A stretch of 64,000 nucleotides of DNA, taken from the NCBI GenBank assembly GCA_000153385.1, contig CH672374.1:757610-821609 (forward strand). Reading direction: 5' to 3'. Below are positions 26,415 through 29,110 of the stretch, piece after piece (position 1 is the stretch's first letter; each line of letters begins with the position of its first letter). This DNA is from Flavobacteria bacterium BBFL7 (GTDB taxonomy: Bacteria; Bacteroidota; Bacteroidia; Flavobacteriales; Flavobacteriaceae). The notes under the pieces are model-generated. The model made no database searches, had not been told where the DNA came from, and saw nothing but the letters and a program-made list of their open reading frames with translations. Position numbers and translations under genes: made by a program.

Positions 26415-26927
26415 TTATTGAGTTAATATTTTTAAATACTTTTTTAATTCTGTTATCAATCCACTATAATCTTTAAGATCCACTCCTATAGAAAGATCAA
26501 AAATTGATTCATTATCACTACCATAAGCAACTTTTAAAACTGATGGCAACGCTAGACTTACATATTCTAACAACTCATTTTCTATGTTAAAATAATTCAC
26601 TTGCAAATCAAAGGGCTGTTGTAACAACTCTTTAGTTTCGACATTTGTAATACCACCAGACCACTTAATTAATTTACGATCAATTAAATGAACGTTTTTT
26701 AATGTGGATTTCTTCTTGTCATTTACATAAGCTATTAGAGTAACTGCTTCCTTTTCTATACTCAACTCTTCTGCCCATTTATAAAACGGTTCTACATTTG
26801 TAGTGAGCTGACCATCATAAATCACCACCATAGATTGAGGCCATTTTATAGATGGCCTATCTTGGTCATTTTGCAGTTTCTGTAGCGCTTTGCGCAACCA
26901 TCTGCGCTTAATTCCGTTAAAAATCAT
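26415..26927 (-). CDS. DUF6913-like conserved hypothetical protein
   Basis: 170 aa, no signal peptide or membrane segment. It begins with a basic amphipathic stretch ([19 protein letters not shown]). The remainder looks like a small alpha/beta domain, with a strand VVIYDG near residue 34 and a C-terminal [21 protein letters not shown] associate this type, found just before dapA in flavobacteria, with DUF6913, but that is from memory and no function is known. Coupled to dapA by a one-base gap. Confidence 0.75.
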
Positions 26928-26965: not shown

Positions 26966-27751
26966 ATGAAATCATCTATTTATAAGCGTCTGGGCAAGGC
27001 TTTTTTATATCTCGCTTTCGCGAAAGCGTTATTAATCACAACCTCTTGCAAATCAGATTACTTACAACTCACCAAAGTAACCAGTTCACAAACACATATA
27101 GACAGCACGCTACAAAGTGTAGAACAGATTGAAAATTATATTGCTCCTTTTAAAAAATCATTGGATGCTCAAATGGATGAACAACTAAGCTTCAATCCAG
27201 TATCCATGAATAAAAATGATTATAAATACAATACTCCTATCGGCAATATGCTAGCAACGATCGTACGTGAGCAAGGCGAACCTATTTATACATCAAGAAC
27301 TGGTAAAAGCATAGATATCGTTTTACTTAATCACGGTGGCATTAGAGCTGGATTACCTGCTGGACCAGTAACCATGAGAAGAGCTTATGAAATCATGCCG
27401 TTTGATAACGAGATCACTATCGCTGAACTATCTGGTGATCAAATGAATGAATTAATTAATTATCTTATTGATCGCAAAAGAGCACATCCATTTGATGGAA
27501 TGAAAATTATTTTAAATGCAGATGATAGTATAAATGAGATAACCATTCAAAATCAACCGTTAGATAAAGACAGAACCTATATCGTGGCTACTAATGACTA
27601 TCTCTATAATGGTGGAGATGACATGAGTTTTTTCAAAGGCGCTGCAATGATGAAGATTGATTATAAAATACGTAACGCTGTCATTGATTACTTTAAGAAA
27701 GTGGACACCATAAAATTTGAACGAGATAACCGATTTGAGGTTTTAGATTAA
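26966..27751 (+). CDS. Lipoprotein with 5'-nucleotidase C-terminal domain (stand-alone)
   Basis: 261 aa. The signal peptide ends LLITTSC (lipobox, Cys about 28). The rest is the substrate-binding C-terminal domain of UshA-type 5'-nucleotidases: NTPIGNMLATIVRE, NHGGIRAGLPAGPVT, IMPFDN and the conserved TYIVATNDYLYNGGDDM, the loop that stacks the nucleobase. The catalytic metallophosphatase domain is absent and is encoded by the next gene, 11 bp downstream. The two probably act as a split nucleotidase in the periplasm. An exact palindrome copy encodes AFAKA inside the hydrophobic core of the signal peptide. Confidence 0.9.
   Translation: MKSSIYKRLGKAFLYLAFAKALLITTSCKSDYLQLTKVTSSQTHIDSTLQSVEQIENYIAPFKKSLDAQMDEQLSFNPVSMNKNDYKYNTPIGNMLATIVREQGEPIYTSRTGKSIDIVLLNHGGIRAGLPAGPVTMRRAYEIMPFDNEITIAELSGDQMNELINYLIDRKRAHPFDGMKIILNADDSINEITIQNQPLDKDRTYIVATNDYLYNGGDDMSFFKGAAMMKIDYKIRNAVIDYFKKVDTIKFERDNRFEVLD
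27013..27028. repeat. Palindrome, exact copy
   Basis: In the signal-peptide codons of the 5'-nucleotidase C-domain gene (YLAFAKALL). Confidence 0.95.
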
Positions 27752-27762
27752 TAAGCAAGAAA

Positions 27763-28689
27763 ATGGAAAGAAGAAAATTTATACGCAATACAAGTGCTGG
27801 AATGGTAGCTGGTGCGGCATTATGGTCTAACTGTGCTCTTGCTAATGGTATTTTTACAGGACCAAAATTAGAGCCTGGAACTAAGAAAATCACCATATTA
27901 CATACTAACGACACACACTCTCACATCGAACCTATTTCTGGTGGCCGTAATGATGGACGTGGTGGTGTTGCTCGTAGAGCAGCTATCATAAATAAGGTGC
28001 GCTCAGAAAATCCTAATACTCTATTACTGGATTGTGGTGATATCTTTCAAGGCACGCCTTACTTTAATTTTTATGGCGGCGAGCTTGAGATTAAATTGAT
28101 GTCTATGATGGGTTATGATGCTGCCACTATAGGAAATCATGATTTTGATAACAGCATTGAAGGTCTGTATAAACAACTACCTCACGCAGATTTTGACTTT
28201 GTCATTTCCAATTACGACTTCTCAAATACCATCATGGATGGACACACTAAACCCTATAAAGTTATGGTAAAGGATGGCGTGCGCATAGGGCTATTTGGTG
28301 TAGGAATACAACTAGACGGATTAGTAGACCCAAAAATGTACAAGGAAACCGTTTACAATGACCCTATAGAAGTTGCAAAGGATCAAATTAAAACACTGCG
28401 TGAAACAGAAAAATGTGATCTAGTAATTTGCATGTCGCATTTAGGCTATTCTTATAGAGTCGATAGAGTATCTGACTTATCCCTTGCAGCAGCAACATCT
28501 GGTATAGACCTTATCATAGGTGGACACACGCATACTTTTCTTGATGCACCAGAGGTTGTAAAAAACGCTTCAGGAAAAGATGTTATGGTGAATCAAGTAG
28601 GTTGCTATGGAATCAACTTAGGCCGTATTGATTTTTACTTAAAAGAAGGAAAGATCGATAAAGGAGTTGACGTGGTTTATGAGATTTAA
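27763..28689 (+). CDS. Tat-exported metallophosphatase, catalytic half of a split 5'-nucleotidase
   Basis: 308 aa. The N-terminus MERRKFIRNTSAGMVAGAAL is a twin-arginine signal, suggesting export folded with metals bound. Metal-binding motifs of UshA-type phosphatases are present: HTNDTHSH (D50, H52), LLDCGDIFQGTPYFN, GNHDFD and GGHTHTF. The protein ends right after the phosphatase domain; the C-terminal substrate domain is the preceding gene. Expected reaction: hydrolysis of nucleoside mono- or related phosphates outside the inner membrane, for phosphate or nucleoside salvage. Confidence 0.93.
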   Translation: MERRKFIRNTSAGMVAGAALWSNCALANGIFTGPKLEPGTKKITILHTNDTHSHIEPISGGRNDGRGGVARRAAIINKVRSENPNTLLLDCGDIFQGTPYFNFYGGELEIKLMSMMGYDAATIGNHDFDNSIEGLYKQLPHADFDFVISNYDFSNTIMDGHTKPYKVMVKDGVRIGLFGVGIQLDGLVDPKMYKETVYNDPIEVAKDQIKTLRETEKCDLVICMSHLGYSYRVDRVSDLSLAAATSGIDLIIGGHTHTFLDAPEVVKNASGKDVMVNQVGCYGINLGRIDFYLKEGKIDKGVDVVYEI

Positions 28690-28711: not shown

Positions 28712-29110
28712 ATGACCAAATCAACTATTACTAAAGGATTCATACTTTCAGGAATTATAAACACGTTAGGGATTCTTTTTTTCACAAAAGGTTTTACCAA
28801 TGAGGTTATTCCAGAAACAGACCCAGTAGTGATGTCCTATTTTGGACTACTTATGATTATGGTTTGGGGACTTGCTTTCATTGCTGTAGCTAAAGTTTTT
28901 GAGAATGTAAAATGGCTTGTTGCTGTATTTGCACTTGAAAAATTTTGCTATGTCATTGCTTATGGATACTGGTTTGCTAATAATAGTGTTCAAGAAGTAT
29001 ATGATAGAGATTTGATAGCTGGAGTTTTTTACTCCATCTATGGTTTAAACGACTTCCTCTTCATGCTTTTTTTTGGGTATGTTTTCATCAAACTCATGAA
29101 ATCCAAATAA
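28712..29110 (+). CDS. Small four-helix membrane protein of unknown function
   Basis: 132 aa with four likely transmembrane segments (about residues 8-26, 41-61, 67-87 and 103-128) and no recognised motif. It follows the nucleotidase pair by 22 bp and may share its transcript. The pattern recalls small DoxX-like or DUF-type membrane proteins, but I cannot assign a family. Confidence 0.75.
   Translation: MTKSTITKGFILSGIINTLGILFFTKGFTNEVIPETDPVVMSYFGLLMIMVWGLAFIAVAKVFENVKWLVAVFALEKFCYVIAYGYWFANNSVQEVYDRDLIAGVFYSIYGLNDFLFMLFFGYVFIKLMKSK

What the first reader, a model, noticed from the sequence alone, without database searches (positions are those of the whole stretch)
26966..28689. 5'-nucleotidase split into two genes in reversed order and with different export signals
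The substrate-binding C-domain is a lipoprotein (Sec, lipobox) encoded before the catalytic metallophosphatase, which carries a Tat signal (ERRKFIRN). In UshA-like enzymes both domains are one chain in the opposite order. A lipid-anchored specificity subunit plus a Tat-exported catalytic subunit would be an unusual two-part enzyme.
Basis: partly seen in the sequence, partly recalled or inferred. Interest (0 to 1): 0.55.

Follow-up and report, generated by a model that had tools for sequence, protein, structure and literature searches.

The report
Two-gene 5'-nucleotidase of Bacteroidota
Two neighbouring genes most likely make the two halves of one nucleotide-cutting enzyme, a membrane-anchored half that holds the substrate and a separately exported half that cuts it, and this two-gene form is shared by many bacteria of the phylum Bacteroidota.

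Summary
Gene 1 (26966-27751, +) encodes only the UshA-type substrate-binding domain, with a lipobox; gene 2 (27763-28689, +) only the catalytic metallophosphatase domain, with a twin-arginine signal. It is not peculiar to this genome.

In 149 family genomes, all 103 with the catalytic gene also have the binding gene; 100 have them adjacent in this order. In a 247-genome phylum sample 60 have the catalytic gene; all 35 of these outside the family have the binding gene upstream. In a separate collection all 39 Bacteroidota loci are split, all 32 others fused. Each half forms one clade.

Catalytic residues and the aromatic base clamp are kept; two UshA pocket arginines are not. AlphaFold on two in-frame read-through pairs gives pTM 0.83 and 0.84, suggesting docked halves.

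Best reading: a periplasm-facing, lipid-anchored two-subunit nucleotidase. Binding, activity and substrate are untested. A new variant of a known kind; my searches listed no description, and a 2023 survey scores these classes as lacking ushA-like genes. Tat export is not special to the split form: 9 of 14 further fused Bacteroidota enzymes, not picked at random, carry it.

The parts
26966..27751 (+). Gene 1: stand-alone substrate-binding subunit (UshA C-domain plus the stretch that precedes it in fused enzymes), 261 aa, predicted lipoprotein
   Evidence: residues 53-259 aligned to 3ivd residues 292-497
26966..27049 (+). Lipoprotein signal peptide, ...LLITTS-C28; after the Cys: KSDYL, no surface-export motif
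   Evidence: export-motif-like in 1 of 122 loci; motif from PMC5080379 (passages)
27209..27637 (+). 5_nucleotid_C domain (PF02872); base-clamp residues F146 and Y212, with R127, N148, D218
27752..27762 (+). 11-nt gap between the two genes
   Evidence: over the 119 of 123 loci that could be measured the gap is 0 or less in 27, 1-50 nt in 72, over 50 nt in 20
27763..28689 (+). Gene 2: stand-alone catalytic metallophosphatase subunit, 308 aa
27763..27861 (+). Twin-arginine signal region, M-E-R-R-K-F-I-R-N; end approximate
   Evidence: TatC in genome
27892..28536 (+). Metallophos domain (PF00149); metal and catalytic residues D50, H52, D93, N125, H126, D129, H226, H255, H257

Best explanation
The pair encodes the two subunits of one extracytoplasmic nucleotidase of the UshA/CD73 family. 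Gene 1 makes the specificity subunit: exported by Sec, lipidated on Cys28 and anchored facing the periplasm, where its two aromatic side chains clamp a nucleobase. Gene 2 makes the catalytic subunit: folded in the cytoplasm, exported by Tat, with a two-metal site and the His126-Asp129 pair. In the periplasm the lipoprotein binds the catalytic subunit as the two domains bind within UshA, which anchors it to the membrane and completes the active site. The likely job is to strip phosphate from nucleotides that reach the periplasm. SHOWN by sequence: two genes, domain content, signals, residues kept, co-occurrence, one clade per half. PREDICTED: docking. INFERRED: binding in the cell, membrane side, need of both halves for nucleotide hydrolysis, 5'-nucleotide substrate.
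For: Co-occurrence: 103 of 103 family genomes with the catalytic gene have the binding gene; 100 adjacent, C first, same strand; in G094 the two are 123 kb apart and both are kept. Of 60 phylum-sample genomes with the catalytic gene, 35 lie outside the family, and all 35, fetched, have the binding gene upstream on the same strand, two of them (G219, G166) about 610 nt away. No orphan binding gene stands up: the 2 of 105 in the family sample lie at contig ends, and the one candidate in the (cut) phylum list, G193, is a fused N-C gene with a break. Pairing outlasts the neighbourhood: 15 of 39 named loci keep dapA and bamD within the fetched flank, 24 share none of the nine window neighbours tested, yet all 39 have the pair. 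Residues: eight metal/catalytic positions kept in 121-123 of 123 (the rest gaps); the ninth, Gln in UshA, is His in 121; F429 position aromatic in 123, F498 position aromatic in 123, N431 in 123, R410 in 119, D504 in 106. GNH[DE]FD in 123 of 123 as in UshA (GNHEFD), not CpdB (GNHEFN). Each half is one clade of 123 (support 0.88-0.97 over two runs). AlphaFold of read-through pairs: pTM 0.83 (L040, Nonlabens) and 0.84 (L069, Chitinophagales), with stretches under pLDDT 50 only in the linker and at or near the ends. Precedent: CpdB N domain alone keeps 5 M-1 s-1 on 3'-AMP against 10^6-10^7 for the whole enzyme; the C domain alone is inactive (PMC7922932).
Against: No binding or activity data. AlphaFold learned UshA/CD73 structures, so it may dock any such halves; the linker also holds them close; no unpaired control was run and no coordinates were inspected, so the geometry was not compared with UshA. 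The window's own two proteins were not folded together (their frames differ). The fold searches gave only single-domain matches and cannot test the docking of a permuted pair. UshA R375 and R379 are not kept (R379 position is Gly in 74 of 123), so the substrate may differ from UshA's. The mirror-tree correlation (0.85) has no control for shared ancestry. The Tat signal is not universal: L175 looks Sec-type, L137 has a single Arg (MNRLKFVK), L172 is unclear. A stand-alone catalytic domain without a stand-alone partner exists in G266.
Confidence: 0.8

Rival explanations
1. The catalytic protein is a complete phosphatase or phosphodiesterase on its own, and the lipoprotein is a separate nucleotide-binding or nucleotide-capture protein that shares an operon and pathway but no active site.
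For: Stand-alone catalytic domains occur: G266 also holds a second, distant Tat-type metallophosphatase with no C-domain in the 9 kb fetched (L200), and its only PF02872 match besides the regular pair lies in a 536-aa frame. The CpdB N domain alone is active on 2',3'-cyclic nucleotides and bis-pNPP.
Against: Co-occurrence even when unlinked, conserved clamp residues, predicted docking.
Confidence: 0.13
2. A real heterodimer, but not a 5'-nucleotidase: it acts on another phosphorylated compound.
For: R375/R379 positions of UshA are not kept. NCBIfam scores for UshA (65 and 124 bits) are far below its 600-bit cut-off. SoxB shows that the same fold can do other chemistry (97.5 bits here, cut-off 550).
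Against: Aromatic base clamp in 123 of 123, R410 in 119, GNHxFD signature in 123.
Confidence: 0.25
3. A broken or rearranged fused gene (decay or assembly artefact).
For: Breaks exist in relatives (G193; L087 and L091).
Against: Own signals on each half, 123 distinct loci, one clade per half, active site conserved.
Confidence: 0.01

Closest known systems
UshA, periplasmic 5'-nucleotidase/UDP-sugar hydrolase (E. coli; 1USH)
   Same: Both domains, catalytic residues, aromatic base clamp, extracytoplasmic; GNHxFD
   Different: One chain, N then C, Sec exported and soluble (recalled); keeps R375 and R379
CD73 and snake-venom ecto-5'-nucleotidases; Thermus 5'-nucleotidase 2z1a
   Same: Best structural matches of the catalytic half (2z1a Z 32.5, 250 residues, 1.7 A)
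   Different: One chain; CD73 is GPI-anchored by its own C end (recalled)
CpdB, 3'-nucleotidase/cyclic phosphodiesterase
   Same: Same two domains; its dissection shows what each half does alone (PMC7922932)
   Different: One chain; GNHEFN signature; gene 1 scores only 19-21 bits against the two CpdB-type models
SoxB thiosulfohydrolase
   Same: Same fold (Z about 28); Tat export (recalled)
   Different: One chain, sulfur chemistry; score far below cut-off
Fused Bacteroidota relatives
   Same: Extracytoplasmic; L009, L013, L029, L032, L037 look like lipoproteins by eye, L205-L213 carry Tat signals
   Different: One chain N-C; L009, L013, L029, L032, L037 fall outside the split clade; L205-L213 were in no tree

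Membership tests
UshA-like 5'-nucleotidase family (PF00149 + PF02872) | Two-metal catalytic domain with D41, H43, D84, N116, H117, D120, H217, H252 (UshA numbers, recalled labels) | tested here: met
   kept in the window and in 121-123 of 123 loci (gaps the rest)
UshA-like 5'-nucleotidase family (PF00149 + PF02872) | C-domain with two stacking aromatics (F429, F498) | tested here: met
   F146 and Y212; aromatic in 123 of 123 at both
UshA-like 5'-nucleotidase family (PF00149 + PF02872) | R375, R379, R410 in the substrate pocket (recalled labels) | tested here: not met
   only R410 kept (R127; 119 of 123)
UshA-like 5'-nucleotidase family (PF00149 + PF02872) | Both domains in one chain, N then C | tested here: not met
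UshA-like 5'-nucleotidase family (PF00149 + PF02872) | 5'-nucleotidase activity | not testable with these tools
   needs protein
UshA equivalog (NCBIfam NF007109) | Score over the 600-bit cut-off | tested here: not met
   65 and 124 bits for the two halves
CpdB-like 3'-nucleotidases | GNHEFN in place of GNHxFD (taken from E. coli CpdB and UshA only) | tested here: not met
   GNHDFD in 103, GNHEFD in 20 of 123
SoxB (TIGR04486) | Score over the 550-bit cut-off | tested here: not met
   97.5 bits
Tat substrates | Twin-arginine motif before a hydrophobic stretch; TatC in genome | tested here: met
   export itself not tested
Bacterial lipoproteins | Lipobox Cys after a hydrophobic stretch | tested here: met
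   lipidation itself not tested
Surface-exposed Bacteroidota lipoproteins (LES) | K-(D/E)2, Q-A-(D/E)2 or S-(D/E)n after Cys | tested here: not met
   1 of 122 loci (L049); window KSDYL

The most novel reading that the evidence does not exclude
The split is a safety device: the Tat subunit folds and takes up metal in the cytoplasm, where a complete 5'-nucleotidase would destroy nucleotide pools, but it is nearly inert on nucleotides until it meets the Sec-exported lipoprotein in the periplasm, so that the active site is assembled across two export routes and only at the membrane. It would be an old, phylum-wide obligate two-subunit enzyme.
Probability: 0.3. Interest if true: 0.72.

Novelty: new variant of a known kind. 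Interest (0 to 1): 0.52.

Why it matters
A well-known enzyme family, whose studied members known to me are single chains, has a widely conserved two-gene form in Bacteroidota, with the specificity half as a lipoprotein. The published ushA survey scores Flavobacteriia, Cytophagia, Chitinophagia, Saprospiria and Sphingobacteriia as negative (PMC10454023, table rows seen), so nucleotide-phosphorus use by these abundant bacteria may be undercounted. A natural split also gives a ready system for asking what each domain contributes.

Tried and rejected
Rejected: pseudogene or assembly artefact. Rejected: Tat export as a hallmark of the split form. Of 39 fused entries (E. coli ushA twice among them) the motif expression flagged two, L076 and L094, neither Tat-like by eye; but 9 of 14 fused Bacteroidota genes fetched carry clear motifs. 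I picked those 14 from the rows, some because the match began at the query's first residues, so 9 of 14 is not a rate. Rejected: surface-exposed lipoprotein, for lack of an export motif.

Led nowhere: fold searches cannot test docking of a permuted chain. No C-then-N fusion was seen among the loci scanned. Mirror-tree r 0.85 was not controlled. Fused type B (my rough class, by the last profile position matched) is rarer where the split pair is present (6 of 105 against 18 of 44, Fisher p 5.5e-7), but related genomes are not independent and G089, probably a truncated fused gene, is counted as split there; fused type A shows no such pattern (p 0.72).

Dropped rows: the AlphaFold alignment A1 left out the truncated catalytic frames of L057 and L061; A2 left out both rows of L039, L041 and L051 (65 of 71 rows). 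L061's catalytic gene reads as two frames and L057's is cut by the contig end; both count as split. could measure 119 of 123 gaps.

Literature searches for a prior description; judged by titles and abstract openings, none described one. The library lacks most subscription journals. PMC8115612 (passages) lists phosphate-regulated proteins of F. johnsoniae; 'nucleotidase' is absent from its main text. PMC5932025 (passages) names one 5'-nucleotidase orthologue group without detail. PMC8071527 was seen in abstract and passages and not used further.

The survey PMC10454023 counted hits with tBlastN score >150 and coverage >70% (passages). I infer, but did not test, that the split halves fail these: phmmer bits to E. 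coli UshA are about 92 and 40. Fused forms are also present in 32 of 149 family genomes (union of the lists) and must have been missed by, or absent from, that survey for other reasons.

Full report
WHAT IS THERE. The window holds two same-strand genes 11 nt apart. The first (26966-27751) encodes 261 aa with only a 5_nucleotid_C domain; the second (27763-28689) encodes 308 aa with the metallophosphatase catalytic domain and no C-domain. Together they cover what UshA has in one chain. The break falls between the domains: gene 2 matches 3ivd residues 5-267 and gene 1 residues 292-497, so gene 1 carries the stretch that precedes the C-domain in the fused enzyme. The genome (3.10 Mb) has six PF00149 matches but only this one PF02872 match. 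The nearest named relatives are Nonlabens (86% identity in gene 1 to N. ulvanivorans).

SIGNALS. Gene 1 begins with a signal ending LLITTS-C28, gene 2 with MERRKFIRN. There are 134 split entries including the window itself, 123 after removing repeats of the same catalytic stretch. Over the 123, RRx[hydrophobic] stands before the catalytic domain in 107 and R[RK]x[hydrophobic] in 121. The two others are L137 (one Arg, MNRLKFVK) and L175 (Sec-type by eye); L172 passes the expression but is unclear by eye. A lipobox expression fits 111 of 123 binding subunits; a Cys after A/G/S/N is found in 122, and only L130 has none. The window genome has TatC. The residues after the Cys resemble the Bacteroidetes surface-export signal (motif from passages of PMC5080379) in 1 of 122 loci, so the protein should face the periplasm.

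HOW COMMON. Family sample: 149 genomes. The binding domain stands alone in 105 and the close catalytic gene is present in 103; all 103 have both. Adjacent, same strand, binding gene first: 100 of 103. Exceptions: G125 (738 nt between the matches), G007 (3.9 kb) and G094 (123 kb, both kept). The two binding genes without a partner lie at contig ends. 24 of 149 have no PF02872 match. Phylum sample: 247 genomes at least 90% complete. 60 have a stand-alone catalytic gene at E < 1e-70 by my count of the table, 25 in the family and 35 outside. I fetched the 35: all have the binding gene upstream on the same strand, in two of them, G219 and G166, about 610 nt away. Searching the same 247 genomes with PF02872 lists 55 frames under 400 aa; 54 are in those 60 genomes, and the other, G193, proved to be a fused gene with a break. 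That list was cut, so weaker matches were not seen; the six catalytic-gene genomes not among the 54 were confirmed as split from their fetched loci. Named collection: 71 loci; by record titles 39 are Bacteroidota, all split, and 32 are other phyla, all fused N then C, two of them (L087, L091) read as two overlapping frames. That collection was drawn with the window's own peptides, so it is not a random sample.

ORIGIN. In trees of each half, the 123 split proteins form one clade, with 38 fused relatives (support 0.95 and 0.96) and again with 46 (0.88 and 0.97). The sister of the catalytic clade is L063, a Sericytochromatia MAG; of the binding clade, L063 with seven Bacillota-type loci. One event, probably early in Bacteroidota, is the simplest reading. 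How the order came to be reversed is not shown; loss of the outer halves of a tandem duplicate would do it (inference).

NEIGHBOURS. Of 39 named split loci, 15 keep dapA and bamD within the fetched flank; 24 share none of the nine window neighbours tested; the pair is present in all. Adjacency therefore outlasts the neighbourhood.

ACTIVE SITE. Against E. coli UshA, eight metal and catalytic positions are kept in 121-123 of 123; UshA Q254 is His in 121. In the binding half F429 is F/Y in 123, F498 is Y/W/F in 123, N431 in 123, R410 in 119, D504 in 106; R375 and R379 are not kept. Residue roles are recalled from the UshA literature, except that PMC7922932 (section 2.2) states the role of H117 and of the stacking aromatics. 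The GNHxFD motif is that of UshA (GNHEFD), not CpdB (GNHEFN).

DOCKING. In seven named loci the two genes share a frame with one stop between. Reading that stop as Q gave chains of binding half, linker (with the Tat signal) and catalytic half. AlphaFold2 with 71 and 65 aligned rows, 7 of them paired, gave pLDDT 87.8 and pTM 0.83 for L040, and 88.1 and 0.84 for L069; stretches under pLDDT 50 are in the linker and at or near the ends. My estimate, not a control, is that undocked halves of this size could reach about 0.5. AlphaFold knows UshA and CD73, so this is support, not proof. The catalytic half matches 2z1a at Z 32.5 over 250 residues, 1.7 A.

MECHANISM. The CpdB dissection shows that the catalytic domain alone loses nearly all activity on 3'-AMP (5 M-1 s-1 against 10^6-10^7 for the whole enzyme) but keeps bis-pNPP and 2',3'-cyclic nucleotides, and that the C domain alone is inactive (PMC7922932: abstract, section 2.2 and passages). 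By analogy the catalytic subunit should be poor on nucleotides until the lipoprotein binds it. The lipoprotein would also fix it at the membrane. Five fused relatives in the family look like lipoproteins by eye (L009, L013, L029, L032, L037), so membrane anchoring recurs.

AGAINST. No experiment; docking could be memory of homologues; loss of two pocket arginines leaves the substrate open; Tat export is shared by 9 of 14 further fused Bacteroidota enzymes, not picked at random, which weakens the idea that the split serves Tat export; and G266 holds a second stand-alone Tat-type metallophosphatase whose genome has no second stand-alone binding gene (its other PF02872 match is in a 536-aa frame), so the catalytic domain can exist alone.

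KNOWN OR NOT. My searches listed no description of a split form. [quoted passage not shown]

VERDICT. A real, widely conserved two-gene variant of a known enzyme family; interesting for its architecture and for being overlooked, not categorically new.

Noticed in passing
L200 (G266:C90), frame of 337 aa; L176 is the same place: A second, distant Tat-type stand-alone metallophosphatase with no C-domain in the 9 kb fetched and no spare stand-alone C-domain in its genome.
   Followed up: partly
L205-L213: A group of fused UshA-like enzymes of Bacteroidota with twin-arginine signals (561-611 aa frames).
   Followed up: partly
L009, L013, L029, L032, L037: Fused relatives in the same family that look like lipoproteins themselves, by eye.
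   Followed up: no
window 28712-29110 +: 132-aa protein, membrane-like by eye, between the pair and an ammonium-transporter-like gene; no Pfam or NCBIfam match.
   Followed up: no
window 26415-26927 -: DUF6913 gene, divergent from the pair and beside dapA; found in the flank of 13 of 39 named loci.
   Followed up: partly
L039, between the catalytic gene and ORF132: About 770 nt more than in L038 at the same place, by the match positions; not examined.
   Followed up: no
L219 (G193:C136): Fused N-C gene read as two frames of 222 and 383 aa with one stop between.
   Followed up: yes
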